DNA of 60,036 nt from Parabacteroides distasonis (GTDB lineage: Bacteria > Bacteroidota > Bacteroidia > Bacteroidales > Tannerellaceae). Shown one piece after another: positions 19,206 through 57,035 of the stretch. Where the stretch lies: assembly GCF_004793765.1 (NCBI RefSeq), contig NZ_SRYM01000023.1, forward strand, positions 1-60,036. The letters run 5' to 3'. The notes under the pieces were generated by a model. The model saw nothing but the letters and a program-made list of their open reading frames with translations, was not told the origin of the DNA and made no database searches. The position numbers were made by a program, and so were the translations under genes. Positions within the stretch are counted from its first letter, which is position 1. Each line of letters opens with the position of its first letter.

Positions 19206-19242
19206 GGTATTTTTTCCAAGGAGGCAAATAGATCGAAAAAAA

Positions 19243-19296
19243 CACGTACGTCTTTTTCCGGAAACACGTACATGTTTTTTGAAAAAGACGTACATG
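19243..19296. repeat. Array of three CACGTACGTG-type units, 22-bp spacing
   Basis: Units start at 19243 (CACGTACGTC), 19265 (CACGTACATG) and 19287 (GACGTACATG), exactly 22 bp apart, with A-runs before and T-runs after each. They sit between two divergent genes and end where the -33 region of the M16 promoter would be. Same family as 1776-1851 and 43264-43317. Confidence 0.85.
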
Positions 19297-19316
19297 TTTT
19301 TCCGGAAAGTCTTTCG

Positions 19317-42042: not shown

Positions 42043-42099
42043 ATTATTTATTGTTGCTTTTATGCTTTTAATTGTTACCTATTTTCTTATTTTCGGGGA

Positions 42100-42107
42100 C
42101 AAAAGTA
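42100..42107 (-). promoter_or_regulatory. -7 box for the SNF symporter gene
   Basis: TACTTTTG on the minus strand fits TAnnTTTG. The upstream element is not at the ideal spacing. Confidence 0.5.
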
Positions 42108-42160
42108 ATAATTTGAATTAATTTGTTCATGCAAAGTATAAATAATTTAGTGAAAGGAGT

Positions 42161-43120
42161 ATGAAACGAGGACGTAAGAAAAAGTTAGCAATCTCATTGA
42201 TGGATTATATGGGAAAACGAAGAGACATGAAACGGCAGTTAAAGAAAGAAGGGACGGCCGAGTTGTATGAGGTGGCCGTAAGGCATTTTTTAAGATTCGT
42301 GAAGAACCCGGGGTTCTGTTTGGCCGATTTGAATCGTGCGTTGGTGATAGATTTCATCACGTATCTTCAGGGAAAAGGATTGGCTACTAATACGGTAAAT
42401 ACGTATATCAGTAGTTTGCGGGCACTTTATAATACGGCATGCCAAGAGTCGTTGATTCCTGCGTCGTATTATCCGTTTGAGAATTTGAAACTCCGGCGTG
42501 CGATGACGGCGAGGCGTGCGATTCCCGCATCTTTGTTCCAGCAAATCGCCCAGATCAAGGTGGCGGATGACCCGCAAGTGGAATTATCGATAGATCTTTC
42601 CCTATTCAGTTTTATGGCTTGCGGGATGCCTTTTGTGGATATAGCGTACTTGACGAGGCAGAATATCCGGGGTAATGAGTTGGTATATCACCGTCATAAG
42701 ACAGGACGTATGATCCGATTGGAGATAACCAGTAGTATGTGGCAGCTGATCCGGAAATACGCAGATCGGCAACGAACGACCGGATCGCCGTATTTGTTCC
42801 CGATTCTTCCGCCCAGGAATCCGGACCATTTGAGGTATAAGCGTAGCTTGGCTCGACATAATGCCCGGCTGAAACGGATCGGGCAAGCTTTACGGTTACC
42901 GAATCCGTTTACGTCGTATGTTGTTCGCCATAGCTGGGCATCGGAAGCTTTACGTTGCGATATGCCGATGGCCTTGATCAGCCAAGCGTTGGGGCATTCT
43001 TCGGAGAAGACGACTCGTTTTTATCTGGAAGAACTGGATATATCACGTTTGGCTCATGCGAACATGAAGGTGATAGGTTCTGTAAATCGGATTCTAGAGA
43101 AAAGGATGGATGGTTTGTGA
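42161..43120 (+). CDS. Tyrosine-type site-specific recombinase (DNA invertase)
   Basis: A 319-residue tyrosine recombinase. The N-terminal SAM-like arm/core-binding domain spans about 30-110, and the catalytic domain about 120-300. Catalytic residues: Lys180 in RHKTGR, Arg256 and His257 in SYVVRHSWAS (Tyr at the usual His position, common in Bacteroidales invertases), His279 in ALGHSS and nucleophile Tyr288 in TTRFYLEEL. The position of the first catalytic Arg is Cys154 (MACGMPFVD); close relatives have RGM there. The CTnDOT integrase also lacks this Arg, so activity is possible. The stop codon directly abuts the left inverted repeat of the invertible promoter, so this is the obvious enzyme for that inversion. 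A GGAG only two bases before the ATG suggests the start could lie slightly downstream. Confidence 0.92.
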   Translation: MKRGRKKKLAISLMDYMGKRRDMKRQLKKEGTAELYEVAVRHFLRFVKNPGFCLADLNRALVIDFITYLQGKGLATNTVNTYISSLRALYNTACQESLIPASYYPFENLKLRRAMTARRAIPASLFQQIAQIKVADDPQVELSIDLSLFSFMACGMPFVDIAYLTRQNIRGNELVYHRHKTGRMIRLEITSSMWQLIRKYADRQRTTGSPYLFPILPPRNPDHLRYKRSLARHNARLKRIGQALRLPNPFTSYVVRHSWASEALRCDMPMALISQALGHSSEKTTRFYLEELDISRLAHANMKVIGSVNRILEKRMDGL

Positions 43121-43169
43121 ACTTATTTATGGAATAAGGAGCCTCATAGAACTTATTTATGGAATAAGG
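43121..43169 (+). repeat. Left inverted repeat of the invertible promoter (IR-L)
   Basis: 49 bp that reappear exactly, inverted, at 43636-43684. It contains two direct copies of ACTTATTTATGGAATAAGG (43121-43139, 43151-43169) separated by 11 bp. Each copy is itself a partial palindrome, CTTATT-TATGG-AATAAG, the form of a tyrosine-recombinase core site. The two bases before it (the GA of the recombinase TGA stop) extend the internal repeat. Confidence 0.95.
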
Positions 43170-43263
43170 TTTAGCATTAATGTTAGTGAAGAATAAACAT
43201 TAAGCGGCATCTTATTGTCATTTTTATAGTATATCATAGATCATACGAAACGTATTGGAAAAA

Positions 43264-43317
43264 CATGTACGTGTTTTTCTGAAAAGACGTACATGTTTTT
43301 TGAAAAACACGTATATG
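43264..43317. repeat. Array of three CACGTACGTG-type units inside the invertible segment
   Basis: Units start at 43264 (CATGTACGTG), 43286 (GACGTACATG) and 43308 (CACGTATATG), 22 bp apart, flanked by A- and T-runs. Same family as 1776 and 19243. Hairpins with T-runs on both strands could stop transcription crossing the segment in either direction, insulating the fimbrial operon from recombinase transcription. Confidence 0.85.
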
Positions 43318-43560
43318 AAATCCAGTAAATAGTATCGTGTCTCTACACAGTTATCAATCAATGGCTTAAATATAGACCTGCCCAAACGAACTTATTGTAT
43401 TATTTATTTTTGATATTCAAGATGAGTATATTAAAGTGTAGAAATTCTATCTTAGTTTAGAATGTGAATCACGAGGGTAGACATGGCTAGTTTTAGAGGC
43501 ATATCTTCCCCTAAATCCCTTATTCAGTGGAAGGGACTTAACAATTTTAACACAAAAAAG

Positions 43561-43593
43561 TTGTGACAATAAAATATTTATTATGTACTTTTG
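43561..43593 (+). promoter_or_regulatory. Fimbrial operon promoter on the invertible segment
   Basis: TACTTTTG (43586-43593) matches TAnnTTTG, with TTGTG (43561-43565) upstream; the TTG is 22 bp away, slightly long. Transcription should start near 43600, so the leader (~187 nt) crosses the right inverted repeat before the first fimbrial gene at 43787. AGGAGGA just after the start (43604-43610) precedes only a five-codon frame. Confidence 0.78.
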
Positions 43594-43635
43594 TAAACTA
43601 ATGAGGAGGAAGCTATAACTTTAACGCTAAAAACT

Positions 43636-43684
43636 CCTTATTCCATAAATAAGTTCTATGAGGCTCCTTATTCCATAAATAAGT
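43636..43684 (-). repeat. Right inverted repeat of the invertible promoter (IR-R)
   Basis: Exact reverse complement of 43121-43169, again with two copies of the 19-bp site. Imperfect inverted similarity continues inward (TTAACGCTAAA at 43621-43631 against TTTAGCATTAA at 43170-43180). In the ON state the repeat is transcribed as part of the fimbrial leader and can form two small hairpins. Confidence 0.95.
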
Positions 43685-43786
43685 CCACGGGCCATTCTTG
43701 CCGTTAGTTGATTTTAGGAGGTTGGGCCTTGAGGGGCAGAAGGGTGAGAAGATATTAAGATTAACAACCATAATGAATAAGAAAGA

Positions 43787-44377
43787 ATGAAGAAGACGAT
43801 TTTCATGCTATTCTTGTTGGCAGTCCCGTTTCTTTCGAGAGCGCAGGGGGTGCCGGTCGAAGGGAAAGGCTCTATGATTGGGATCAAGAGCAATATTCCT
43901 TATTGGGCTACTGCCACGTTTAATTTGGGGGCCGAGGTTTATCTCGCCCGTCATTGGACACTTGAGTTGGAGGCAGGCTTGAATCCGTTCAGCGGCAAGA
44001 ACGATGATGGGAGTTATGGCCGCTCACTGAAGCATTTGCGTCTGCACCCGGAGTTGAGGTATTGGTTTTGCGAGACGTTTAACGGCCATTTCCTCGGTGT
44101 GCATACGCCGTACCTATTATATAATGTAGCCGATATCAAATGGCTGGGTACAGAGGGCGAGCGTCATCAGGGATGGGGCGCGGGAGCTGGTGTCAGTTAT
44201 GGATACTCTTGGCTGCTGTCTCGCCATTGGAACTTGGAGGCCACGGTGGGCGTAGGCTATCTGTTCTTGAAGTCGGATAAGTATCCCTGTGCGAATTGCG
44301 GCCGCAAGCAAGAAGGGATCAAGAAGCATTACTTCGGGCCTACGCAGGCGGCGATCAATCTCATTTACCAATTTTAA
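43787..44377 (+). CDS. DUF3575 family envelope protein, first gene of the fimbrial operon
   Basis: A 196-residue exported protein (signal ending PFLSRAQ) of the DUF3575 type, predicted to be a small outer-membrane barrel. Amphipathic strands fill the body (ATATFNLGAEVYLARHWTLE, LEATVGVGYLFLKS) and it ends in a strand with C-terminal Phe, AAINLIYQF, typical of outer-membrane proteins. Genes of this type commonly precede Mfa/Fim fimbrial clusters in Bacteroidales; their exact role is unclear. It is the first gene under the invertible promoter, about 187 nt from the predicted transcription start, and 19 bp ahead of the next gene. Confidence 0.83.
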   Translation: MKKTIFMLFLLAVPFLSRAQGVPVEGKGSMIGIKSNIPYWATATFNLGAEVYLARHWTLELEAGLNPFSGKNDDGSYGRSLKHLRLHPELRYWFCETFNGHFLGVHTPYLLYNVADIKWLGTEGERHQGWGAGAGVSYGYSWLLSRHWNLEATVGVGYLFLKSDKYPCANCGRKQEGIKKHYFGPTQAAINLIYQF

Positions 44378-44396
44378 ATCGATGGAGGACTGAAAA

Positions 44397-45857
44397 ATGA
44401 AGAATCTACAAGGATGGATGATACTTGGGATCGCCTGTTTGGCCGGTTGTGTTGGCTCTACGATTCCCGTACAGGCGCAGCAGGCGGCTACCGCCATCGT
44501 CGTGAAGGAGCGGTTGGTGGAACATGTGGGCGATCGCTTGATAATTGATATGAAACTAGCGTTGGACGAGTTGTCGCTACCTGCCAACCGGAGTTTGGTT
44601 TGTACGCCGCTGATCGAGCGGGACGATAGCGTAAGGGCTTTGCCTCCTGTGATCGTGAACGGGCGCAACCGCCAGATCCAGTACGAGCGATCCAAGCGTG
44701 ATGCGATGGCGAACGAAGAGTTTGTCTTACGCCGTTACAACGGGAAGGAGCAGACGTTCGATTACCATGCCTCCATTCCTTTCGTCAAGTGGATGGAGCG
44801 TTCGGAGGTGTCGCTGGTAGCCGATTTTTGCGGTTGCGGCTGGGAGGCGTTGAGTAATGATAAGTCGCCGCTTTTCCCGATCCGAATCGCGGAGCCTGTG
44901 GTATTGCGTCCGCTTTTGGCCTACGTCACGCCGGAGGCGGAACGTGTGAAAGAGCGTGTGAAGGAAGGAAGCGCCTTCCTCGACTTCCCGGTAAACCGCA
45001 CGGAGATATATCCCGAGTATCGCGACAATCCCTCGGAGTTACGTAAGATCCTCGAGACCGTGTCGTCGGTGAAGGAGGATCCTTACGCTACCATCACGGA
45101 GGTATATATCAAGGGTTTCGCATCGCCGGAAGGTACCTATAAGCATAACACTTATTTGGCCGAGCATCGCGCCAAGGCGTTGATCGAATACGTGAAGGGC
45201 CTTTACCACTTCGAGCAGGCCCGTTTCACGGTGGATTTCGAGCCGGAGGACTGGGCCGGATTGGAGAAACGGGTGGAGAACTCCTCGCTTGCGGACAAGG
45301 AGGAGCTGCTGGCCATCATCCGTGCGGACGAGCCGAAGGATTACGACCGCCGCGAGGCGAAGCTGAAGGCGTTGAACGGAGGAGCCTCGTATCGGGTACT
45401 CTTGCGTGATATTTATCCCGCCTTGCGCCATTCGGATTACGCGGTGCGCTATACGATCCGTTCGTTCACGGTGGAGGAGGCGCAAGACTTGATCTACAAG
45501 GACCCCAGGCAGTTGAGCCTGAACGAGATGTTTCAGGTGGCGCAGACGATGGAACCGGGTAGCGACGCTTACCGCGAGGTCTTCGAGATCGCTGTGCGTA
45601 TGTATCCGGACGATCCGGTGTCGAATCTGAACGCCGCCCTTACGGCGATCGACGCAGGTCGCTTGGAATCGGCTCGCCGTTATTTGGCGAAGACTTCCGA
45701 TTCTGCGGAGCGTACCTTGGCAGAGGCGGCCATCGCCATGCTGGAGAACCGCTTGGACGAGGCGGAGGCCCTGCTGGGCAAGCTGTCCGGTGATCCTTCC
45801 GTAGCCTCACAGGTGGAGGAGAACTTGAGGCAGATCGCTGAGAAACGGCAAGAGTAA
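44397..45857 (+). CDS. DUF3868/OmpA-like domain protein of the fimbrial operon
   Basis: A 486-residue exported protein. The N-terminal ~160 residues match DUF3868-type sequence (VVKERLVEHVGDRLIIDMKL, SLVADFCGCGWEAL). From about 215 an OmpA-like segment follows (ITEVYIKGFASPEGTYKHNT, LAEHRAKALIEYV), which in OmpA proteins binds peptidoglycan. The C-terminal ~110 residues look like TPR helices (FEIAVRMYPDDPVSNLNAAL, LESARRYLAKTSDSAERTLA). The likely role is linking the fimbrial assembly site to the cell wall. It is paired with the DUF3575 gene, as in other Bacteroidales fimbrial loci. Confidence 0.83.
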   Translation: MKNLQGWMILGIACLAGCVGSTIPVQAQQAATAIVVKERLVEHVGDRLIIDMKLALDELSLPANRSLVCTPLIERDDSVRALPPVIVNGRNRQIQYERSKRDAMANEEFVLRRYNGKEQTFDYHASIPFVKWMERSEVSLVADFCGCGWEALSNDKSPLFPIRIAEPVVLRPLLAYVTPEAERVKERVKEGSAFLDFPVNRTEIYPEYRDNPSELRKILETVSSVKEDPYATITEVYIKGFASPEGTYKHNTYLAEHRAKALIEYVKGLYHFEQARFTVDFEPEDWAGLEKRVENSSLADKEELLAIIRADEPKDYDRREAKLKALNGGASYRVLLRDIYPALRHSDYAVRYTIRSFTVEEAQDLIYKDPRQLSLNEMFQVAQTMEPGSDAYREVFEIAVRMYPDDPVSNLNAALTAIDAGRLESARRYLAKTSDSAERTLAEAAIAMLENRLDEAEALLGKLSGDPSVASQVEENLRQIAEKRQE

Positions 45858-45894
45858 AAATAGGAATAAGATAACAGACATAAATTTTAATATT

Positions 45895-47982
45895 ATGAAA
45901 AAGAAAAAATGGTACGTAGCGATGGCAACGGCGCTTTTATTGGCGGCCGGTTGTTCCGATGATCTCGACAACGGGAAAAATAACACCGGGGCGGAAGAGG
46001 ATGGCGAGAAGGTCTATATGACGGTGAACGTCTCTACGGTTTCGCAAGGAACGCTAACGAAAGCAGATCCTACTCCTTCTAATCCTAATTCGGGGGGAGC
46101 CGGTTGGGGCGAAGATGGTAATGGTTCTCTTGGTGAGCTTTCTGGCTCTAAAGAGGGTATGGTATATGATGTTAATATATTCTTGGTGCCAACAAAAGAA
46201 GAGGTTTTGGAGGCTAACAATCAGCTGGAGTTACTGAATACTAACAATGGTAGTAGTATACAGATCGCAGGCCAAGGTTATTATTCGAATCTGGAAGGTA
46301 TTGATGCGAGTCTAGGTGGAAGTGAGCCTGGTCATGGTGACGGAAAGGTTACGATGAAAGTAACCATGAAGAATCCTCTGACACAAGATAAGAGCAATTA
46401 TCAGGTATTTGCCGTTATTAATGCGGGAGGAAGGTTGACCGGTATTATTACGTTGGCAGACTTGCGCGATAGAGTTGCCGCAAACGATAGGGCATTGTGG
46501 ACTCCTGCTAGTAATATGGCGGAGTACCATCATTTTGTAATGTCTACACATAAGATGATAAGTGGTGCTATTCCTTCTAACGGCAGTTCTATCGTTGAAC
46601 TTTCTGCTGCGAATATGGATGAGACAAATCCGGCTCAGACAACGGTGTTCGTAGAACGTTTAGCCGCTCGTATTGATTTGGCATACTCCTCGAATTTAGA
46701 TCTGACTAATATACCGGGAACTTCTCCTGTAAAGAATAAGGGTACGTTCACGTTGAAGAGGTATAAGGTAGTGAATCAGTGGAAGGGCGAGAGTTATCTT
46801 TTTAAGCAAGTTTCTCCTACGGTACAGTATAACTATGGTGCTAATGCGGTATTGCCGGCAGATGGTACCAACGATCCTGTTCGATATTTAGGTGATGAGA
46901 AATGGATATGGAGGAATAATGACACTGGTGCCGGATCGTACAATTATGTGTTAGATCCGAATATCCGGGAAAAGAAATTGCCGGAAGGGGAAAGTTCTTC
47001 TTGGGATCAATTTAAAGATTCATATGTCAATTATTTTAATCCGAGCAATTCAACTGATTTGAATAACTTGGATAAGATGGTGTCTATGCCTACTTCCGGA
47101 TTAAGCTATACACAGGAAGTAAGTGGTGATAGTCGGACATATTACCCGGTTGTTTATACCAAGGAAAATACGTTGGATCTGAACTCGCAGGTACATGGCT
47201 ATACTACCGGTGTAATCTTCGAGTCTGAATTTACTCCGAGTAACAACTTTAAGGTGAGTTCCTATGAAAATGGGGAGATCAAGTCTGTGAATTTGCCTAA
47301 TGGTGATAAAACGTTTCTTTCCGCGGCTCATTATAATAGTAATGGTTCTGTGTCACGTCTTGTTTATAAAGATGTGAAGAGCGTTGCCGCCCGTGCGTTC
47401 AATTTGGAAAACGACAAGGCAAATTTGTTGAAAGGCTTTATGGATGGTTGGGATGGTATGACTGTGAATGTCGATGCTATGAAGAATGCGATTCAAGGTA
47501 TGTCTTCCCAAAATGGATTAGAAAGTGCGTTTAAGGAATATTTGGAGAAGGCTTTGGCTGATAACGCTACTCTTGATGAGGATCTTAAACAGAAATTGAC
47601 TTATGCGGCTTTTAGGAGACAAGCTGATCATCTTCCTTCTAATGTTACCCCTGTATCTCAATTCAGCTCAGAGCAGATCGGCAATTTATACCAATTCTAT
47701 AATGTTTCCCTATACAAAAGCGGAAGAAGCTATCACAAGTTTTGGATCCGTCATGATGATAACGGAAACGATGGTCTGATGGGCGTGATGGAATTCTGTA
47801 TCGTACGCAATAACGTGTACCAGTTGTATGTGAAAGGTATTCGCGGCTTGGGCGATCCGTTACCTTATACCCCGGGTAAGGATGATCCCGGTACGCCGGA
47901 TGAGAGTGATGATGTCACCATCGACGTCACTATCTACGTGAAGGATTGGGTAAAACGTACGAACAAAGACATTATCCTATAA
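45895..47982 (+). CDS. mfa1: Mfa1-family major fimbrial subunit (fimbrillin)
   Basis: A 695-residue lipoprotein precursor (lipobox LLAAGC) resembling Mfa1/type V pilus shaft subunits, which are exported as lipoproteins, cleaved and polymerised at the surface. The N-terminal half has the fimbrillin pattern EKVYMTVNVST...VYDVNIFLVPTKEE and FVERLAARIDLAYS. The C-terminal domain has FWIRHDDNG, MGVMEFCIVRNNVYQLYVKG and ends VTIYVKDWVKRTNKDIIL, the strand expected to serve in donor-strand exchange. It is longer than P. gingivalis Mfa1. Two hairpins follow its stop codon before the anchor gene, which could keep subunit mRNA in excess. Expression depends on the orientation of the invertible promoter. 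Confidence 0.9.
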   Translation: MKKKKWYVAMATALLLAAGCSDDLDNGKNNTGAEEDGEKVYMTVNVSTVSQGTLTKADPTPSNPNSGGAGWGEDGNGSLGELSGSKEGMVYDVNIFLVPTKEEVLEANNQLELLNTNNGSSIQIAGQGYYSNLEGIDASLGGSEPGHGDGKVTMKVTMKNPLTQDKSNYQVFAVINAGGRLTGIITLADLRDRVAANDRALWTPASNMAEYHHFVMSTHKMISGAIPSNGSSIVELSAANMDETNPAQTTVFVERLAARIDLAYSSNLDLTNIPGTSPVKNKGTFTLKRYKVVNQWKGESYLFKQVSPTVQYNYGANAVLPADGTNDPVRYLGDEKWIWRNNDTGAGSYNYVLDPNIREKKLPEGESSSWDQFKDSYVNYFNPSNSTDLNNLDKMVSMPTSGLSYTQEVSGDSRTYYPVVYTKENTLDLNSQVHGYTTGVIFESEFTPSNNFKVSSYENGEIKSVNLPNGDKTFLSAAHYNSNGSVSRLVYKDVKSVAARAFNLENDKANLLKGFMDGWDGMTVNVDAMKNAIQGMSSQNGLESAFKEYLEKALADNATLDEDLKQKLTYAAFRRQADHLPSNVTPVSQFSSEQIGNLYQFYNVSLYKSGRSYHKFWIRHDDNGNDGLMGVMEFCIVRNNVYQLYVKGIRGLGDPLPYTPGKDDPGTPDESDDVTIDVTIYVKDWVKRTNKDIIL

Positions 47983-47987
47983 CCCTA

Positions 47988-48040
47988 CCCCTTCGGGGGA
48001 TTCTTACGATGCCCATTCTAAGAACCTTATAATGGGCATC
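47988..48040 (+). terminator. Two hairpins between mfa1 and mfa2 (attenuator or mRNA stabiliser)
   Basis: First, CCCC-TTCG-GGGG (47988-47999), a UUCG tetraloop hairpin 6 bp after the mfa1 stop. Second, ATGCCCATT (48009-48017) pairing with AATGGGCAT (48031-48039), two units of the ATGCCCAT repeat family set 23 bp apart. Neither has a T-run, so partial termination or 3'-end protection is more likely than a full stop. Confidence 0.55.
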
Positions 48041-48097
48041 ATGGTTTACCTCCATCCCCGGTAGTACGGGCGGAGGATTACTGTGTATTTTAATAAA

Positions 48098-49231
48098 ATG
48101 ATTATGAACCGTTTATTTCATACCTGCAAACAGTTGATTGGCATAGCTGCCTTGTCCGTGGGGCTATACGCTTGCGATTGGATACACGACGACTCGCTGC
48201 CGCTTTGCGAGTTCCGCCTGTATTTCAAGTACGACTATAATATGAAATTCGCCGACGCTTTCCAGCATGAGGTAGACTTCGTTACGCTCTTCTTCTGCGA
48301 CCAAGAAGGAAACTTCCTTTTCCAGCGGCGGATCGAGAAGAGCGAGCTGGACGAGCGGAACTCCATCGCCCTCGACATGGAGCCGGGTACCTATCAGGTA
48401 GTCACTTGGGCCGGGCTGGACAAGGGCAGTTACGCATGGAACGACCCTGCCGAGACGTCGCAGGCTGTCGGGAGGGCGCAAGACGTCAAGGTACGTACCT
48501 TGCGCGAGGCCAATACGACACAGCCCAACGAGCTGCACCCGCTTTGGCATAGCCTTGATACCTTCACCGTGACGCGCGATAGGCCCGAGGCCGACACCAT
48601 CTCACTCGCCAAGAATACCAACAAGCTGCGGGTCGTGCTGCAAAACGTGATGGGCGAGGACATGGACGTGAATAACTTCTCCTTCCGGATCGTGGCCGAC
48701 AACGGGTATATGGATTTCGACAACTCCTTGCTGCAAGATCCCACCATCCACTACCTGCCCTATTATACGGAGAACGTGGAGATCGGGGCGGATCCTACCC
48801 CGGGAGCTACCGTGGGCGGGCAATACGTGGCCGTGGCCGAGATGAACACCATGCGCCTGATGGCGGGACGCAATTACCGTCTTATCATCCGTCACCACGG
48901 ATGGGAGAAAGACGTGCTGAACGTGAACCTTAACGATTACCTCCTCCTCACCAAGATGGAGGGACATCGTATCTCTGCGCAAGAGTATCTGGATCGGCAG
49001 GATGAGTACTCTATCATCTTTTTCCTTACGCCGAAGGTATGCCCCGATTGTCCGGATAAGCCTACGCCTCCGGACCCACCGGGACCGGATAATCCTGACA
49101 ACCCTGACAATCCGAATAACCCGGATAACCCCGATGGCCCTGATCCGGAAGATCCTACGATCGTGGGGTACGCCTGCTTCAAGATACAGGTGAAGGATTG
49201 GGTGATTCGTATCAACGATGGCATATTGTAA
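48098..49231 (+). CDS. mfa2: Mfa2/FimB-family fimbrial anchor lipoprotein with extra C-terminal strand
   Basis: A 377-residue lipoprotein (lipobox VGLYAC) of the FimB/Mfa2 family, which caps and anchors the fimbria in the outer membrane. Family features are LPLCEFRLYFKYDYN, VDFVTLFFCDQEGNFLFQ, LDMEPGTYQVVTWAG and LLLTKMEGHRISAQEYLDRQ. After the usual domain come a Pro/Asp/Asn-rich linker (PDNPDNPNNPDNP type, about 335-352) and a final strand, FKIQVKDWVIRINDGIL, that closely resembles the C-terminus of the neighbouring Mfa1 protein. A GTG at 48083 has a GGAGG 6 bases upstream, and an ATG at 48104 is also possible; the signal peptide fits 48098 or 48104. Confidence 0.85.
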   Translation: MIMNRLFHTCKQLIGIAALSVGLYACDWIHDDSLPLCEFRLYFKYDYNMKFADAFQHEVDFVTLFFCDQEGNFLFQRRIEKSELDERNSIALDMEPGTYQVVTWAGLDKGSYAWNDPAETSQAVGRAQDVKVRTLREANTTQPNELHPLWHSLDTFTVTRDRPEADTISLAKNTNKLRVVLQNVMGEDMDVNNFSFRIVADNGYMDFDNSLLQDPTIHYLPYYTENVEIGADPTPGATVGGQYVAVAEMNTMRLMAGRNYRLIIRHHGWEKDVLNVNLNDYLLLTKMEGHRISAQEYLDRQDEYSIIFFLTPKVCPDCPDKPTPPDPPGPDNPDNPDNPNNPDNPDGPDPEDPTIVGYACFKIQVKDWVIRINDGIL

Positions 49232-49255
49232 ACTGAGATTTATTAAATATCGCTA

Positions 49256-50887
49256 ATGATGAGACGCTATACCATATATAACTTATTGACGGCGGTCGTC
49301 TCCGGCCTTTGCCTCTGTGGGCTTTTTACGGCCTGCGGCGAAGACCGGGGTGGCGATTTCCCGGATGACGACCCGAACCATTGTGTCGTAACCATCACTT
49401 TGCGGACTTCCCGCTCGGTACGACCGCCGCAGACGAAGGCCGGCGAGACAATTACTTGGGAAAATGATGATGAATACGAGCGAGACATCACGAACTGGCT
49501 GGTGGTGGCGTATGATGAGAGTGGCGTATTGGCGGGATATACCTCCAGCGAAGGTACCTATAATAAGGATGATGTTGATTCCTGCACGTCGGTGGATATG
49601 AGGTTGCCGGTCGGCACGTACCGTTTTTATGCGTTCGCCAACTTGGAGTCGTTGGAAGGTGGCGAAGCGCTTCTTGAACAGATCAAAAACACGAACCCCG
49701 CCTCGGGAGATCTGGGCTTGTCGGAAAAGGCTTTGGTAAGGGCGGTGAACATCCTGGCCTCGGGCAATAGCAGCATAGATGGGCGGAATGGTACACCGGG
49801 CAAGTTCGGTGGAGCGGATGGTATCGGAAATAGATTGCGTATCCCCATGAGCAGCTATGCCCAAGAGCATACGCTGCGACCCGCTCCGGCAGAGAACACA
49901 TTCGGGATCCCCTTGATCCGCATGATCGGCAAGGTACGAGTAGAGATAACGAATAACTTGCCCCAAGCGATAATCGTAAGCAAACTGGACATCATGAACC
50001 TCCGCAAGGGAAGCCTGCCGATCTGGCTCTTGCCTTGGGGAGCGGATAAGTATTTGGAATTTGAGGGCGACGTGGACTTGGAGCAGCCTTTGGCGCCCAA
50101 TTTTCCGAATGACGCGACTCCTCCGACGGTAAACTCGAAGGATCTTTTTGCAGAAGAGATCTTGCCTGGGGCAGATGAAAAACAAATACCGGGTAAAACG
50201 GACGGTAGTGCGGATGGTAATGTAAAAGTTTACACCCGCTATATCCCCGAGACCAACGCGGCCGTCGGAGAGAACGGCGGTGGCATCCACCTCGGTGTAG
50301 AGATCGAAGGCCGCCCTCGTACGGAACACCTCACGGGCTTCGACTTCGTACGCCGCAATGACCTGCTGGTCATCCCTGTCGTGATAACCAACATCACGAC
50401 GAAATTGGAAGTAGCCGAGCAACGCCTCCCCATCGGGGTCTACCCGACCGCCTTGGTCTATGGTGAGAAGACGGGCGTGCAAATACTGACGCCTGTTGAG
50501 CATACCCTGCAAGCCGCCGGCGACTTGTCGATCCGTTTCGAGATATCTAGCATAGAAGGCGTGACAGGAGATTTCACGATCAAAGGTCTCCCGCAGGATG
50601 AAACGGTTACGGAAACAGCGAAAATTAGTTCGATCCAAGTAAAAAGCGACGAGAAACGTCTCATTACGGCCGTAAACGGAGAGGATTGTGACAAGAAACA
50701 GCGTTTCTACCTTCCCGAGGCTTCGGTCAAGGAAGGAAAGAAAGGTTCCTTCACGATCCGCACTCGGGAACTGGGTGGAAACGTGGATGCTACAGTCATC
50801 CTCACGCTCATTATAAACTATTATGTGGGTCAGGAGAAGCAAGAGATGCAAATCCCCTACACCATCAAGATAAGAAACTACAAATAA
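49256..50887 (+). CDS. Fimbrial accessory/tip subunit (fimbrillin-like lipoprotein)
   Basis: A 543-residue lipoprotein (lipobox LFTAC) with fimbrillin-like features: an N-terminal strand CVVTITLRTSRSV, the segment DITNWLVVAYDESGVLAGYT, the phrase LPVGTYRFYAFANLESLEG and IRMIGKVRVEITNN, typical of N-terminal fimbrillin domains. The second half carries VRRNDLLVIPVVITN and a strand-rich C-terminus ending IPYTIKIRNYK. Its place after the anchor gene corresponds to accessory tip subunits (Mfa3-5 or FimC-E positions) in Porphyromonas. A long open frame on the opposite strand is a by-product of codon bias. Confidence 0.78.
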   Translation: MMRRYTIYNLLTAVVSGLCLCGLFTACGEDRGGDFPDDDPNHCVVTITLRTSRSVRPPQTKAGETITWENDDEYERDITNWLVVAYDESGVLAGYTSSEGTYNKDDVDSCTSVDMRLPVGTYRFYAFANLESLEGGEALLEQIKNTNPASGDLGLSEKALVRAVNILASGNSSIDGRNGTPGKFGGADGIGNRLRIPMSSYAQEHTLRPAPAENTFGIPLIRMIGKVRVEITNNLPQAIIVSKLDIMNLRKGSLPIWLLPWGADKYLEFEGDVDLEQPLAPNFPNDATPPTVNSKDLFAEEILPGADEKQIPGKTDGSADGNVKVYTRYIPETNAAVGENGGGIHLGVEIEGRPRTEHLTGFDFVRRNDLLVIPVVITNITTKLEVAEQRLPIGVYPTALVYGEKTGVQILTPVEHTLQAAGDLSIRFEISSIEGVTGDFTIKGLPQDETVTETAKISSIQVKSDEKRLITAVNGEDCDKKQRFYLPEASVKEGKKGSFTIRTRELGGNVDATVILTLIINYYVGQEKQEMQIPYTIKIRNYK

Positions 50888-50933
50888 CAACCATAATATA
50901 ACAACAATAAACTAAAAAAGGAGGACCTGACGG

Positions 50934-53900
50934 ATGAGACCATCAATCAACCTACGATATAAATCCCTGTTATTAACTTGCTTGCTGATCCTGTCCGCCG
51001 GTGCGGTTGCGCCGGCGTGGGGGCAACAGTACACGATTATTCCTAGTACACAAACTAAAGTCACTGAACGTGTGGATACAGTGTATGTAAAAGATGGGGT
51101 AGAGAGGGAGTTGTTTGTGCCGGAGTTGAGGAATAATGATGGGGGTAATGTCGATTCACGTTATAAATGGTATGTACGTTGGTATTTGGGAAATGGAAAG
51201 GATGTAAGCTCTTCACTAAAATCAACACCGGTTGACGTTACCACCGATAAACTAGTGAAAGGAGGTACTGCAAAAGTAGGATTCCATAATGCTTCATTAA
51301 AATTAGCAAATAATGGTAAATCGTTATTTTGGTATGATGGATTTTACAAGGAGTTTACATCCACCGCAACAGGAGCATCTACGGTTTCATACTTCTCATC
51401 TAAAGTGGAAGATGGTGACATTGTTGTATGTGATGTTAGTTTAAATAAGGTGAACGTTTCAGGATCTACAATTACAGAACCAGTGATTTCCATGCGTTAC
51501 AAATTTGTCATTCAGCGTGCAGAAAATATAGCTAAGCGAATAGCGGCAATGAGTGGCTCTCCTTTTATTGAGGAAAATATATGGACTAGTGAGGGTGATG
51601 AGAATATTAACGTACAATTGGGAATGACTGCTAATAATTATGCGTGGTATAAAGATGGAACTACTCAAATTGTGGTAGGAGACTCTTATCGATATCAGAT
51701 AAATGGAGGATCGTATCAGACTCTGAAATCTTGGGAGCAGATAATAGATTCTTTAAAGATTACGAATGAAACGACATTGCAAATTTGGGCTATTAATGAT
51801 ACGGAAATAAGCCCTTTGCTTTATAAGTATACACTTGCTCCAATCAGTGGTTCAGGCTTTATGCTGGAAGATAGCATGTTGGTACAGCAACAAGAGAATC
51901 GGCTGGATATGAGGCGGGAACCGGATAAACATAAGGATGTATATGAAATGATTGGTTATATTAATTTCGATAGGAATGATTCGATAACCCTTAGCGAATT
52001 AATGGCTGATAAATCAAAGAATATCGTATCCTGCAGTTTCGCAGAAAATGCATCAGATAAAAGCAAATGGTTGGATCCGGAAGTTACGGGTTATGCACCG
52101 TATAATTATAATACACAATATGAACAATATTCTCGTATACAAACACTGCAGAACCAATATGGATTGTTCCGTACGGCCAATTTGAAAGATTGTTCTAGGG
52201 ATGGTCTATCGTTTGGCAATACAAATAAGTATTATTGGTTTGTAGCCAAAAAATATACTAATAACGATTTCAAAAACTCGCCAGAAATATATGACCGGAC
52301 TTATTATAATACGGATAAAAAATCATTAGGGTATTTCTTTTATGTGGATGCGGCAAATTTGCCGGGACGTTTGGTGAAGATTAAATTGGATGGTATTATG
52401 TGCGCTCATACGGGTATCCTAGTAAACTTTTGGGTAAATGATATGACAACAAGAGCGAATGAGACTCATTCAGGTTCAAAAGGAGGTAAGCCTCTTCCTC
52501 CAAATATCAATATGAATTTCATTGGACGGGATAATCAAGGAAATGATGTTGTCTTGCACCGTTTTACTTCAGGAGATGCGCTTACGTACTATTCGATGAA
52601 GGATCCCTATAATGTTACGACTAATATTTCAGATAATCAGCCTCATTCGTATGAGACCAATGAATACATCGGCAAATGGCAACAGTTGGTTTATTCTTTC
52701 AACCTATTAGGGGATTTGAGTAACTATAAAGAGTTCTATTTAGAGGTACAAAACAACACCATTCATGCGAATGGTTCCGATTACGCTATCGACGGCTTGC
52801 GTATCTATCGTACCAAGCCGCAGATCGACGTGAAGCGAGTAGACGTGTGTTCTTCTGCCAACCTGACCGTTGCCACGGATTACGAACTTCTGCTCAAGAA
52901 TATGGGTTGGAGCATTAATCCGGATGTATTGTCCGATCTGAATATGGGGAATGAAATAACGGAAGATTCAAAGCATATATGGAAATACCGCTATGGTTTG
53001 ATGGGTGGAGATCCAACGAAAAGAAAAGATAATCTTAATAAAACGATCGGAAACGTTTATATTGGAGCTACCGATAAAAAGGAAAAAGGGAATATAAAGG
53101 ATCCTGAAGATTGGATTACATTAAATACGGATTTGAAGGATTATAGTAATGAGCGCTATAACAACCGAAGCAAGGTGTATCGTATTATCGTTCCGACTAA
53201 AGAAGGGTTGAAGCATCAAGGATTTGAGGATCTGACAAATTATGAAACTGCGATGCGACGACAAATTGTCGTAAACCTGCGTATGGTCAATGATTTCTTA
53301 TATGATGCAGCTAAGCGAGGAGTTTGGGATGAAGACATAACCGCACATGCCCAACAAACAAATGGGGAATCGTTCCCGAAAGAAGAGTATATCGCATATT
53401 TGAAACAACATTTGAGAGATCTTTGTGACAAATCAGAGTGGGACTATAAGATTCCTGATCCGAAAGACCTGGAGAATCAGATAGATCAAATAATGAATGG
53501 ATATGACAATAGATATGAAGAACTGATACGAGCCGTATGTTCCGTGGTGGGTATTTCTCGTCCTCGTGTGCCTTGGTGGGATGAAGAAAATAGCAATACC
53601 ATCCATTTGAGTGCCATTGATGTGGACAAGACTGAGTTGAGATATAAAGGTGAGAAACCTTACGGAAGCGGGACGAAGGTAGAGCCTGCCTCCGGTAAGT
53701 ATGATGTGGTAATCTTTAGTGCGACCGCGACAGTTACTAGTAATCAAGGGGTGGATTTCCCGAATGCCTCTGCGGGAGATAGTTTCCAAGATCCTTGCTT
53801 GCTGACTACCCCTTTCACCGTACTCCCTTCCTTCACGGTCGTAGCGAATACCAAAAGTGATTTGCCGGAGGGCATGATCGCTTGCGAGGGACGGATCAGT

Positions 53901-56873
53901 CAGATCGAGAAAGCGACCGTATGGGTTGAACAGTTGGATGGTGACCAAAATCCAACCGGGGAACTGACGGAGTTTGAAAAGATAGACGCTTTCAAAGATC
54001 ATTCATATACGTTCGATTGGTTCTTGGGCGACTCGCTGGAATTTGCGGCGTTCCATGAGAGGCATGGGGTATCATTAGAAGAGATATTGAGCTCTTATAG
54101 AAATCAACTTTCTAATGGAAATAATGCTTTGCCTTTCCAAGCAGAAGCTTTGATTGAGTATTGTAAAAACAATGACGAATATAAGGCTCTTGATTTAATT
54201 GAGGAATTGAAGACATTGCTCTTAGGTGATGTGGACACAGAGCCGAAATTAGTGATTGGCGGGAAGTTTGGATATGCGGAATTCCGTTGGGTAAAAAAAG
54301 TGGTAGCGATTCCTTATCTACCGGAGAGTATTCTTGAGGGTGAACAACGCAAATGGCTCTTCTGCGACAAACCTCAGGAAAAAGTATTGGAAGCTGCTCC
54401 CGCCCCGAAACTACTTGTTGGTTTCCCGGATGTGGAGTATCCGGAAGGAATGGAGCACTATCCCAATGTTCCCCTGCGTATCGGCTTGCCGAATATCGTA
54501 GAAGGAAGCATAGAGAATATTCCTATTCAAGGAAAAGGTTTGACGATGGGTATGAAAGAATCTAACCAATTGGGTCTGCCTGATGGTAATGCTAAGACTA
54601 TATTCTTGCGGCAAGGGCAGACTTATATAGAGGTAGGTGATTTGACGGCTTTGTTTGCGAAAGCTAAAACTGAAACTGAAACTGATAATGGCGGCGGGTT
54701 ATTCTCGATGACCTTTAAGAAGGATGCCTATAAAGAATTTGCCGAAGGCCAAATCTATTCACTTTATATCCCATTCGGTGAATATAAGGATGGAAATTTC
54801 GTAGCAGGCTCTTGCGAGGGATATGCTACCTTACTTATCAAGATCGTGCCGGAATACTTGACTTGGACGGGTAAGAACATCGGTGAGGATGCTGCGGCAT
54901 GGTATAATGATGCGAACTGGCAGCAGTCTACGAAAGGGGAATTGTACATTCAAACGGGAGCAAGCGATGAGGATGCCAATGGTAACGATGATGTGACCGC
55001 CGCCTTCGCCCCGCTTCATTTCACCCGTATCACGATCCCGGGAGGGCAGACACTGGAATTGGAAGACTTGAAAGAGGATAAGAATTTACTGCAAGGAATT
55101 GATACGACATCTGAAACAAAGGCTACCCAATATATCCAATACGATATGGCGGTAGACAAAAAGGAAGATAATACGATCGTAGCTCCGTACTATATAAATA
55201 AGGTAAAGGCTATCTATTTCAAACCCGAGGCGCAGTTACGCCGTCAGCAATTCCTGACGTACGACACCGCCCGTGTGGAATTCGAGATGACACCTGACGC
55301 GAAATATTGGATGGCATCGCCCCTGCAAAGCGTATTCGCCGGCGATATGTACACCGTAAAGAACACGGGCCGTCAGAACACCTATGCTTTCGACGATATC
55401 ACTTACCGCACGGCCAACAACGACCGCCAAGCCCCTGCCTTCTACCAGAAAGCCTGGGACAAGGCGATCACGATGTACGTGCCGAAGAGTGAGGTCGATC
55501 CGGTAGATCTCAATCTGATTTTGGGGAACGATGAATTAGACAAGAAGAATTACGAGATAGTCCAATCCAATTGGAGCCGTGAATACAATGATGTGAACGT
55601 CCCCTACGCTTTGGGAAAGGGATTCTATGCCAGCGTAGAAAAGAAGAATGCGACCGGCTTGGGCGAGAAAGTATTGGTACGCTTACCGAAAGCGGATACG
55701 GAGTACAAATACGAGCCATTGACCAAAGCCATGACCAAAGCCCCGACTTTGGCGGAACGGATCAATGCCGGCAAGCTGGCGGATGAGAAGCCGATCGAGG
55801 TGGTATTGACAGATACGAATGGAACGGAAGAATGGTGGAATACGGATAATGGAACCGTCCGTGTCATCGCCGATGGTGACGGTAAGCACTTCCTGTTGGG
55901 TAATCCGTATATGTATCCGTTGGATATCGTTCGTTTCTTGAAAGAGAATGAGGCTATCTTAGCGCAAAAATATTGGACATTGGATGTGAAGGAGGGGCTT
56001 GTTGTCGGTACACCTGATGTGGAATGGGAAGGTGGAAATGTTACTGATGCTACATCCGGAGCCGTTATCGCCCCCATGCAAGCCTTCTTCGTAGAGCTGA
56101 AAGATGCGGCTCAAACAAAAGCGGAAGGTACGGCAACCGGTACCGATCTGAAGGTGGTTCATTTCGATCCCTCCATGATGCAAGGAGAGCCGGAGAAGGT
56201 CTCTTCTTCCTTGCGTACCGCTACGGCCAAGAACCCGGTATTGAGGCTGACAGCGGAGCGAGATGCATATCGCAGCACGGCCTTGCTGACGCGGCAGGAT
56301 GATGCTGCGAATAGTTATGAGGCAGATAAGGATGCCGTAATCTTGCTGGATACGGAACTGGAGGAGATCCCGCAAGTGTACACCATTGCCGGGACTCGTG
56401 CCGTAGGCGTGAACGTAGTACGACGGATCGACCAAGTGCCCCTTGGCGTATATGCCGGCGAGGGTAAGGGCGAGGTTACGCTGACGATAGAGGGTATTGG
56501 CGATTGGGCGGAGACGCTTTACCTGTACGATGCCGTGACCCGTAAAAGTACGGAGCTGTCGGGCGATACCTACACCCTGCGTCTGGACGGCAGCAGCCAT
56601 GGACGTTACTTCCTAAGCGCAGGCTCGCCTACCGGCAATGAGGGGGTAGACAACGTAGAATCTATCTCTGTCTATTCCGCCGTATCGGGTAGGGTAGTGG
56701 CCAGCGCAAGCGAGGCATTGAAGCGGATACAGGTGTTTACGCCGATGGGTCGTTTGGTACGTACCTTATATCCCGCCCGTCCGACTTATACGTTCGATCT
56801 CCCGGCAGGCATCTACATCATCCGCGCGGAGATCGCCCGCGACCAGAAGACGGTGAAACTACGGGTTCAATAA
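50934..56873 (+). CDS. Giant (1979-residue) surface protein with C-terminal sorting-like domain
   Basis: The last gene of the fimbrial operon, with a strong AAGGAGG site 10 bases before its ATG. It has a signal peptide (ending APAWGQ) but no lipobox. Most of its length shows no domain I can name. Around residue 1310 is WTGKNIGEDAAAWYNDANWQ. Towards the end come LGNPYMYPLDIVRFLKENEA and IAPMQAFFVELKD, motifs seen just before C-terminal sorting domains. The last ~75 residues (SVYSAVSGRVV, IQVFTPMGRLVRTLY, YTFDLPAGIYIIRAE, TVKLRVQ) resemble a type A sorting domain of the type IX secretion system. It may be the fimbrial tip adhesin or a separately secreted adhesin sharing phase control. Function is unproven. 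Confidence 0.85.
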   Translation: MRPSINLRYKSLLLTCLLILSAGAVAPAWGQQYTIIPSTQTKVTERVDTVYVKDGVERELFVPELRNNDGGNVDSRYKWYVRWYLGNGKDVSSSLKSTPVDVTTDKLVKGGTAKVGFHNASLKLANNGKSLFWYDGFYKEFTSTATGASTVSYFSSKVEDGDIVVCDVSLNKVNVSGSTITEPVISMRYKFVIQRAENIAKRIAAMSGSPFIEENIWTSEGDENINVQLGMTANNYAWYKDGTTQIVVGDSYRYQINGGSYQTLKSWEQIIDSLKITNETTLQIWAINDTEISPLLYKYTLAPISGSGFMLEDSMLVQQQENRLDMRREPDKHKDVYEMIGYINFDRNDSITLSELMADKSKNIVSCSFAENASDKSKWLDPEVTGYAPYNYNTQYEQYSRIQTLQNQYGLFRTANLKDCSRDGLSFGNTNKYYWFVAKKYTNNDFKNSPEIYDRTYYNTDKKSLGYFFYVDAANLPGRLVKIKLDGIMCAHTGILVNFWVNDMTTRANETHSGSKGGKPLPPNINMNFIGRDNQGNDVVLHRFTSGDALTYYSMKDPYNVTTNISDNQPHSYETNEYIGKWQQLVYSFNLLGDLSNYKEFYLEVQNNTIHANGSDYAIDGLRIYRTKPQIDVKRVDVCSSANLTVATDYELLLKNMGWSINPDVLSDLNMGNEITEDSKHIWKYRYGLMGGDPTKRKDNLNKTIGNVYIGATDKKEKGNIKDPEDWITLNTDLKDYSNERYNNRSKVYRIIVPTKEGLKHQGFEDLTNYETAMRRQIVVNLRMVNDFLYDAAKRGVWDEDITAHAQQTNGESFPKEEYIAYLKQHLRDLCDKSEWDYKIPDPKDLENQIDQIMNGYDNRYEELIRAVCSVVGISRPRVPWWDEENSNTIHLSAIDVDKTELRYKGEKPYGSGTKVEPASGKYDVVIFSATATVTSNQGVDFPNASAGDSFQDPCLLTTPFTVLPSFTVVANTKSDLPEGMIACEGRISQIEKATVWVEQLDGDQNPTGELTEFEKIDAFKDHSYTFDWFLGDSLEFAAFHERHGVSLEEILSSYRNQLSNGNNALPFQAEALIEYCKNNDEYKALDLIEELKTLLLGDVDTEPKLVIGGKFGYAEFRWVKKVVAIPYLPESILEGEQRKWLFCDKPQEKVLEAAPAPKLLVGFPDVEYPEGMEHYPNVPLRIGLPNIVEGSIENIPIQGKGLTMGMKESNQLGLPDGNAKTIFLRQGQTYIEVGDLTALFAKAKTETETDNGGGLFSMTFKKDAYKEFAEGQIYSLYIPFGEYKDGNFVAGSCEGYATLLIKIVPEYLTWTGKNIGEDAAAWYNDANWQQSTKGELYIQTGASDEDANGNDDVTAAFAPLHFTRITIPGGQTLELEDLKEDKNLLQGIDTTSETKATQYIQYDMAVDKKEDNTIVAPYYINKVKAIYFKPEAQLRRQQFLTYDTARVEFEMTPDAKYWMASPLQSVFAGDMYTVKNTGRQNTYAFDDITYRTANNDRQAPAFYQKAWDKAITMYVPKSEVDPVDLNLILGNDELDKKNYEIVQSNWSREYNDVNVPYALGKGFYASVEKKNATGLGEKVLVRLPKADTEYKYEPLTKAMTKAPTLAERINAGKLADEKPIEVVLTDTNGTEEWWNTDNGTVRVIADGDGKHFLLGNPYMYPLDIVRFLKENEAILAQKYWTLDVKEGLVVGTPDVEWEGGNVTDATSGAVIAPMQAFFVELKDAAQTKAEGTATGTDLKVVHFDPSMMQGEPEKVSSSLRTATAKNPVLRLTAERDAYRSTALLTRQDDAANSYEADKDAVILLDTELEEIPQVYTIAGTRAVGVNVVRRIDQVPLGVYAGEGKGEVTLTIEGIGDWAETLYLYDAVTRKSTELSGDTYTLRLDGSSHGRYFLSAGSPTGNEGVDNVESISVYSAVSGRVVASASEALKRIQVFTPMGRLVRTLYPARPTYTFDLPAGIYIIRAEIARDQKTVKLRVQ

Positions 56874-56879
56874 CACATC

Positions 56880-56931
56880 CGGCAGCACTGTCGTACGACC
56901 TTAGACAGTGCTGCCGAATGACCTTAGACAG
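56880..56931. terminator. Hairpin and 23-bp repeat after the fimbrial operon
   Basis: CGGCAGCACTGTC (56880-56892) and GACAGTGCTGCCG (56904-56916) form a perfect 13-bp stem. GACCTTAGACAG occurs at 56897 and 56920, 23 bp apart, so the spacing matches the other intergenic arrays. It starts 6 bp after the stop of the giant gene and probably ends the fimbrial transcript, though no T-run follows. Confidence 0.65.
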
Positions 56932-56971
56932 ATCGTATGTAATAGGAACGTTTCTTATTTGTTCCATCTTT

Positions 56972-57002
56972 TTTGGCAATCTGATATAAATCCCTACCTT
57001 TG
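56972..57002 (+). promoter_or_regulatory. Consensus promoter of the Rpn-family gene
   Basis: TTTG (56972-56975), a 19-bp gap, then TACCTTTG (56995-57002): a full match to the Bacteroidetes consensus. Transcription should start near 57009, giving a leader of about 27 nt to the ATG at 57036. Confidence 0.8.
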
Positions 57003-57035
57003 CCCGAAACGAGACATTACATAAAACATATCGTC

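What the first reader, a model, noticed from the sequence alone, without database searches (positions are those of the whole stretch)
42161..56873. Phase-variable Mfa-type fimbrial operon under an invertible promoter
Seen: perfect 49-bp inverted repeats at 43121-43169 and 43636-43684, a single forward promoter between them (43561-43593), a tyrosine recombinase gene ending directly at the left repeat, and six co-oriented surface genes starting 103 bp past the right repeat. Known: Bacteroidales switch capsule and other surface loci with invertible promoters. Inferred: the promoter flips, turning the whole fimbrial operon on or off. The cluster includes a giant 1979-residue protein, so one flip would change both fimbriae and this protein.
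Basis: partly seen in the sequence, partly recalled or inferred. Interest (0 to 1): 0.88.

Follow-up and report, generated by a model that had tools for sequence, protein, structure and literature searches.

The report
Flip-switch for a gut-bacterial fimbrial operon
A short piece of DNA carrying the only recognisable promoter of a fimbrial operon sits between two recombination sites beside a gene for a flipping enzyme, and a sister species carries it the other way round, so this gut bacterium can probably switch its fimbriae and a giant secreted surface protein on or off together.

Summary
The window is from a Parabacteroides close to P. distasonis. A tyrosine recombinase gene abuts a 49-bp perfect inverted repeat; the repeats enclose 466 bp with the only full Bacteroides-type promoter match on the coding strand between 42.1 and 56.9 kb. 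Six genes follow: DUF3575, DUF3868, Mfa1-type stalk, Mfa2-type anchor, another lipoprotein, and a 1979-aa protein. In P. distasonis the orthologous segment is inverted between conserved flanks (promoter OFF there, ON here), and the junctions place the crossover within 19 bp shared by the arms. Three further homologous segment pairs in the genus are opposed. In 41 of 41 loci with both arms resolved, the right site core is the reverse complement of the left, although cores differ between loci. The giant protein carries a type IX secretion C-terminal domain, as P. gingivalis Mfa5 does, and a jelly-roll resembling carbohydrate-binding modules. Switching within a strain and its effect on transcription were not testable. 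Tyrosine-recombinase switches of Bacteroidales surface loci, one fimbria-related, are known, so this is a well-supported new member of a known kind.

The parts
42161..43120 (+). Tyrosine recombinase gene (319 aa), presumed inverter of the adjacent segment
   Evidence: Pfam Phage_int_SAM_5 1.4e-17 and Phage_integrase 1.6e-10; R178, K180, R256, H279 in 43 of 43 and Y288 in 42 of 43 aligned site-associated homologs
43121..43169 (+). Left inverted-repeat arm: two tandem recombination sites
   Evidence: Perfect reverse complement of 43636-43684
43122..43138 (+). Site L1, CTTATTTATGGAATAAG
43152..43168 (+). Site L2, CTTATTTATGGAATAAG
43170..43635 (.). Invertible segment (466 bp), here in the presumed ON orientation
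   Evidence: Orthologous segment in P. distasonis lies in the opposite orientation between collinear flanks
43562..43593 (+). Promoter: -33-like TGTG, 20-bp spacer, -7 TACTTTTG, facing the operon
   Evidence: Only full hit of this model on the plus strand, 42.1-56.9 kb; the homologous element is on the minus strand in the P. distasonis locus L095
43636..43684 (-). Right inverted-repeat arm: two tandem recombination sites
43637..43653 (-). Site R2
43667..43683 (-). Site R1
43787..44377 (+). DUF3575 protein
   Evidence: PF12099 8.1e-68
44397..45857 (+). DUF3868 protein
   Evidence: PF12984 5.3e-8, 33.3 bits against cut-off 27
45895..47982 (+). Mfa1-family fimbrial major (stalk) subunit, lipoprotein-like N-terminus
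   Evidence: NF038041 169.8 bits against cut-off 130; Fimbrillin_C 5.2e-22
48083..49231 (+). FimB/Mfa2-family anchor subunit (true start probably an ATG slightly downstream)
   Evidence: PF08842 3.5e-73
49256..50887 (+). Further lipoprotein-like fimbrial subunit, possible tip
   Evidence: weak PF08842 match, 22.6 bits against cut-off 21.2; position in the operon
50934..56873 (+). Giant 1979-aa secreted protein, predicted type IX secretion cargo
56880..56916 (+). Strong stem-loop after the last gene, likely end of the operon
   Evidence: -28.6 kcal/mol, z -6.6

Best explanation
This is a self-contained promoter-inversion switch. The tyrosine recombinase encoded next to the segment recombines 17-19-bp sites (CTTATT-TATGG-AATAAG) in the two inverted arms and so inverts the 466-bp segment. 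In the orientation seen here (ON) its promoter reads out through the right arm into a six-gene Mfa-type (type V) fimbrial operon that ends in a giant type IX-secreted surface protein. In the other orientation (OFF) the promoter points back towards the 3' end of the recombinase gene and the operon is silent. Shown: the anatomy, inversion between close relatives, crossover inside the shared site, promoter orientation, gene identities, and the presence of type IX components. Inferred: that this recombinase catalyses the flip, that flipping happens within a strain, that transcription follows orientation, and that the giant protein acts as a fimbria-associated adhesin.
For: Sister-species locus (G004): flanks collinear at 97% and 96%, segment inverted at 82%. 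Flipping it in a script gives 600 of 688 aligned bases identical against 421 of 650 unflipped. Outer flanks of the sites stay in place while inner flanks swap, so the crossover lies within ACTTATTTATGGAATAAGG. Three further opposed pairs: L098/L108, L114/L122 (94% over 390 bp), L118/L161 (83% over 102 bp). The 17-mer with at most 1 mismatch occurs 107 times in 38 genus genomes against 7 for the reversed control pattern. By my reading, these form 43 inverted clusters, 42 with a recombinase match beside them; the 43rd (L122) is cut by a contig end. Of 48 distinct recombinase entries, 41 have both arms; in 41 of 41 the right core is the exact reverse complement of the left, and in 40 of 41 the first site begins between -31 and +21 bp of the recombinase stop (many of these loci were chosen by their sites, and the scan demands intact half-sites). 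The site occurs nowhere else in the window's genome. TAnnTTTG in 42 segments is directional: 28 reverse and 7 forward, 4 segments having both, against 11-12 each in shuffles. SprA and the T9SS sortase are encoded in the same genome. PMC5903667 (passage) reports numerous inversion sites in P. distasonis, without naming this locus in the passages seen.
Against: No second strain of this species could be examined for the alternative orientation. Of six well-aligned pairs of fimbrial-type segments two are in the same orientation (L109/L110, L125/L133), and all 41 pairs among the other segments are, judged by the stronger strand; the short L101/L102 match (30 bp, same strand) was left out. The recombinase lacks an Arg at the canonical Arg I position (CGMPF where XerC/D-type enzymes have GLR; motif recalled), and its activity is unproven. 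The promoter call is a consensus match with an imperfect -33 element. The strict -33/-7 model hits 15 of 42 segments in reverse and 3 forward, against 2.8 and 2.6 in shuffles.
Confidence: 0.87

Rival explanations
1. Inversion happened rarely in evolution and is fixed in each species, so it is not a live phase switch.
For: Inversion was seen only between species or between paralogous loci, never within one strain. Most homologous segment pairs are in the same orientation (43 of 45).
Against: The arms are identical over 49 bp although the segment itself is only 82% identical to that of the sister species. Arm cores match in all 41 resolved loci. Four draft contigs end 64-149 bp past a recombinase stop, just after the left site (L169, L173, L175, L177), as expected if both orientations were in the sample, though repeats alone can break assemblies.
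Confidence: 0.08
2. The segment flips but another recombinase of the genome does it, and the adjacent gene is incidental.
For: The genome encodes many tyrosine recombinases of this family (37 matches to the protein, itself and some gene pieces included). B. fragilis uses a master invertase acting on distant sites (passage in PMC5903667).
Against: Recombinase and site pair stay together in 42 of 43 inverted clusters. Recombinase lineages sort by the type of operon: 17 of 18 that I labelled fimbrial-type fall in one group, with two of unknown cargo (FastTree, midpoint root, support values not examined). No other copy of the site exists in the window's genome.
Confidence: 0.06
3. The inverted repeats are transcriptional or mobile-element features and the opposite orientation is an assembly error.
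For: Assemblers can mis-orient segments between long inverted repeats (general knowledge, no call).
Against: The P. distasonis arms are only 23 bp with one site each, in a one-contig assembly, short enough for ordinary reads to span. Four opposed pairs exist. No terminator-like site was found in 42900-44000.
Confidence: 0.02

Closest known systems
Tyrosine site-specific recombinase switches of B. fragilis outer-surface protein loci (Weinacht et al. 2004; paper not seen, known here only through the review PMC12632263, section 14 and passages)
   Same: Tyrosine recombinase, DNA inversion, outer-surface protein locus; the review cites that paper for a phase-variable locus encoding a protein that matches a B. 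fragilis fimbrial N-terminus
   Different: Different genus; the review says fimbriae could not be shown for that locus. Whether it has this site, gene order or a type IX cargo was not tested
Phase-variable surface glycoproteins and capsule loci of P. distasonis (Fletcher et al. 2007 and genome work; papers not seen, cited in PMC8400631, PMC2943079, PMC4030854, passages only)
   Same: Same genus, phase variation of surface genes; capsule loci described with a tyrosine-type recombinase gene upstream of the UpxY homolog; C-terminal similarity of the putative S-layer glycoproteins to Tannerella S-layer proteins, themselves likened to CTD proteins
   Different: The operon here is a Mfa-type fimbrial set. 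Whether the giant protein is related to the Dgp glycoproteins could not be tested
P. gingivalis mfa1 cluster with Mfa5 (PMC7835359, passages)
   Same: Type V fimbrial genes; a fifth, exceptionally large protein that depends on type IX secretion
   Different: No invertible promoter was mentioned in the passages read. The giant here is 1979 rather than 1228 aa, and no von Willebrand domain was found. DUF3575 and DUF3868 genes lead this operon
E. coli fim switch (mechanism recalled; named in PMC5903667 passages)
   Same: Works alike: a small invertible promoter segment beside tyrosine recombinase genes controls fimbriae
   Different: Unrelated fimbriae and site; here one recombinase gene and tandem sites
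B. fragilis Mpi system (PMC5903667 passage)
   Same: Invertible promoters of surface loci
   Different: Mpi is a serine recombinase acting on many loci; here a tyrosine recombinase with one local pair of arms in the genome

Membership tests
Recombinase-linked invertible promoter of Bacteroidales | Inverted repeats flanking a promoter | tested here: met
   (promoter by consensus only)
Recombinase-linked invertible promoter of Bacteroidales | Tyrosine recombinase gene beside the repeats | tested here: met
Recombinase-linked invertible promoter of Bacteroidales | Both orientations exist in nature | tested here: met
   Between species and paralogous loci: 4 opposed pairs; within one strain not testable
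Recombinase-linked invertible promoter of Bacteroidales | Orientation controls transcription | not testable with these tools
   Needs RNA data
Recombinase-linked invertible promoter of Bacteroidales | The recombinase catalyses the inversion | not testable with these tools
   Only adjacency and matching arm cores
Type V (Mfa-type) fimbrial operon | Mfa1-family stalk subunit | tested here: met
   NF038041 169.8 bits against 130
Type V (Mfa-type) fimbrial operon | Mfa2-family anchor | tested here: met
   PF08842 3.5e-73
Type V (Mfa-type) fimbrial operon | Tip subunit with ligand-binding domain | tested here: inconclusive
   543-aa protein has only a weak Mfa2 match and no convincing PDB sequence relative
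Type V (Mfa-type) fimbrial operon | Polymerised fimbriae on the cell | not testable with these tools
   Needs microscopy
Type IX secretion cargo (type A CTD) | C-terminal sorting domain | tested here: met
Type IX secretion cargo (type A CTD) | Type IX machinery in the genome | tested here: met
   SprA 3171 bits, T9SS sortase 1147 bits; other components not tested
Mfa5 of P. gingivalis | Very large protein of an mfa cluster with a type IX CTD | tested here: met
   PMC7835359 passages
Mfa5 of P. gingivalis | von Willebrand A domain with MIDAS and isopeptide | tested here: inconclusive
   No Pfam match at 1e-3; not among the listed fold matches, which does not exclude it
Dgp glycoproteins of P. 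distasonis | Sequence relation to DgpA/DgpC | not tested
   Paper not held; named sequences not at hand
Mpi-type global invertase system | Serine recombinase with many genomic targets | tested here: not met
   Tyrosine recombinase; one pair of arms in the genome

The most novel reading that the evidence does not exclude
The switch is a self-regulating module that has diversified together with its cargo. In the OFF orientation the promoter fires antisense into the 3' end of its own recombinase gene, which in 40 of 41 loci ends within about 30 bp of the first site. OFF would then silence the inverter and be stable, while ON releases it. That would explain why -7 elements face OFF in 28 of 42 segments and ON in 7. 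Each flip would jointly set two export routes, type V fimbriae and a type IX-secreted giant adhesin. Tandem extra sites in the arms (8 of 41 loci) could tune the flipping rate.
Probability: 0.22. Interest if true: 0.68.

Novelty: new member of a known kind. Interest (0 to 1): 0.47.

Why it matters
A paper on 26 P. distasonis genomes reported no complete mfa-like cluster (PMC9409006, passages). Here is a full Mfa-type operon, present in P. distasonis too (L095), beside a flip switch and ending in a giant predicted type IX cargo. A population of this gut commensal would contain fimbriated and bare cells, which bears on adhesion, phage sensitivity and immune contact. The genus-wide site motif lets anyone find these switches by sequence and score their orientation in existing reads.

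Tried and rejected
Serine-recombinase (Mpi-like) reading: rejected, the gene is a tyrosine recombinase and the site occurs in this genome only in these two arms.

Other strains through IMG/VR: the 47-base arm pattern and a 23-base flank pattern found 0 contigs.

Rfam over 41500-57500 at gathering thresholds: 0 matches. The giant and the 543-aa protein have no convincing sequence relatives in the PDB.

von Willebrand domain in the giant: not found in Pfam at 1e-3 nor among listed fold matches. This does not exclude it; parts outside residues 333-630 and 1909-1979 were barely tested.

Arg I-less active site of the IntDOT kind: considered from memory; the paper search gave a listing only and I read none of those papers, so it is left as recall.

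Searches for a printed description of this locus. Nothing in their listings, or in the passages I read from some of the listed papers, describes it; but most subscription papers are not held, and Fletcher 2007 and Jiang 2019 could not be read.

Full report
What is there. The recombinase gene (42161-43120) ends with its stop codon against a 49-bp perfect inverted repeat (43121-43169 / 43636-43684). Each arm is two tandem copies, 30 bp apart, of a 17-mer made of palindromic half-sites around an asymmetric core (CTTATT-TATGG-AATAAG). Allowing 2 mismatches, these are the only 4 copies in the 4.2-Mb genome (reversed control 3). The 466-bp segment between the arms holds one full Bacteroides-type promoter match facing right: scanning 42.1-56.9 kb on the plus strand for TAnnTTTG with a TTTG-like -33 element gave that hit alone; a second bare -7 element lies at 43405. 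That Bacteroides promoters have -33 and -7 sites is stated in PMC12632263 (passage); the consensus letters are recalled.

The operon. The first gene starts 103 bp past the right arm. The order is DUF3575, DUF3868, Mfa1-family stalk (NF038041 169.8 bits, cut-off 130), Mfa2-family anchor (3.5e-73), a 543-aa protein with a weak Mfa2 match, and the 1979-aa protein. Gaps are 19, 37, 100, 24 and 46 bp. A strong stem-loop follows the last gene (z -6.6), and the stalk-anchor gap also folds strongly (z -4.1).

The organism. All 10 named loci that one search returned for the recombinase come from Parabacteroides records, so I take the window's genus to be Parabacteroides. The nearest relative, G004, is a single contig of 4,811,379 bases. 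Its giant protein is 98% identical to P0042, labelled Parabacteroides distasonis and found on 234 contigs. The length matches the P. distasonis type strain as I recall it.

Inversion. In G004 the query pieces 1-981 and 1506-1740 align on one strand at 97% and 96%, and the piece between them, 991-1496, on the other at 82% (repeated). After flipping the G004 segment, 600 of 688 aligned bases agree, against 421 of 650 before. Unflipped, its promoter faces the recombinase. The G004 arms have one site each. Comparing junctions, the bases outside each site stay with the chromosome and those inside swap, which places the crossover in the 19 bp common to both arms. Three more homologous pairs are opposed: L098/L108 (two loci of one genome), L114/L122 (94% over 390 bp) and L118/L161 (83% over 102 bp). 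Against this, one search found 45 homologous pairs among 39 segments and only 2 were opposed; by my reading the 41 pairs not of the fimbrial type are all in the same orientation by the stronger strand (3 of them identical copies in one genome). Of six well-aligned fimbrial-type pairs (counting L118/L161, whose second contig ends before its cargo, and leaving out the 30-bp L101/L102 match) four are opposed.

A genus-wide module. With one mismatch the 17-mer occurs 107 times in 38 genus genomes, with a match in 19 of the 38, against 7 for the reversed control. By my reading of that list 95 sites form 43 inverted clusters and 12 lack an inverted partner nearby; 5 of those 12 lie within 150 bp of a contig end (one search gives contig lengths). 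A recombinase match lies beside 42 of the 43 clusters; the other, L122, is cut by a contig end. Of 48 distinct recombinase entries (a few are gene pieces), 41 have both arms: 33 with 1+1 sites, 4 with 2+1, 3 with 1+2 and this one with 2+2. In 41 of 41 the right core is the exact reverse complement of the left, although cores differ between loci. The limits: the scan demands intact half-sites, many loci were picked because they match the pattern, and for L111 the arms were set by hand. Matching cores in the two arms are what live recombination between them would maintain. The operons served include the Mfa/giant type, polysaccharide loci, other fimbrillin-like operons and a HU/DUF4469 gene. The Mfa/giant module recurs: 19 of 40 fetched stretches carry DUF3575, DUF3868, Mfa1, Mfa2 and giant homologs together, two of them with a broken giant gene and some cut by contig ends. 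Giant homologs occur in 22 of 35 genus genomes and, weakly, in 2 of 24 outside the genus. In a FastTree tree of 43 recombinases, 17 of the 18 that I labelled fimbrial-type group together, with two of unknown cargo; L159 lies outside (midpoint root, support not examined).

Promoter orientation. In 42 segments (two identical copies dropped) TAnnTTTG occurs in the reverse (OFF) direction in 28 and forward in 7, 4 having both; shuffles give 11-12 each. Related segments share orientation by descent, so these are not independent. The stricter model gives 15 reverse and 3 forward, 2 having both, against 2.8 and 2.6. The window is one of the few ON cases.

Verdict. The mechanism is known in kind: the review PMC12632263 (section 14 and passages) cites a tyrosine-recombinase switch of a fimbria-related B. 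fragilis locus, and P. distasonis phase variation is cited in PMC8400631 (passages). What I did not see described in my searches is this fimbrial switch, its conserved site motif, the grouping of recombinase lineages by cargo, and the coupling to a type IX cargo. Not shown: flipping in one strain, transcription, catalysis.

Noticed in passing
G000:C116:18275-21070 (contig outside the window; L127): Remnant of a second such locus: a 70-residue recombinase piece followed about 1.1 kb later by two giant-protein pieces.
   Followed up: partly
window 43255-43317: A palindromic element of about 59 bp inside the invertible segment recurs elsewhere in this genome (window 19238-19303 and several other contigs) and in G004, G023 and G032: a dispersed repeat.
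   Followed up: no
window 48008-48040: Strong hairpin between stalk and anchor genes (whole gap z -4.1), possibly setting more stalk than anchor from one transcript.
   Followed up: no
L151, L156, L162: The same kind of invertible segment and recombinase lies upstream of a gene that in L151 is a HU-like DNA-binding/DUF4469 protein, followed by one with a DUF6383/sorting-type C-terminus; L156 and L162 look alike from their first residues.
   Followed up: no
window 43170-43635: The invertible segment is 82% identical to that of P. distasonis while its flanks are 96-97%: fast divergence for its surroundings.
   Followed up: no
window 57000-57992: ORF after the operon with no Pfam match above cut-off and a repeated QKSQEIE stretch.
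   Followed up: no
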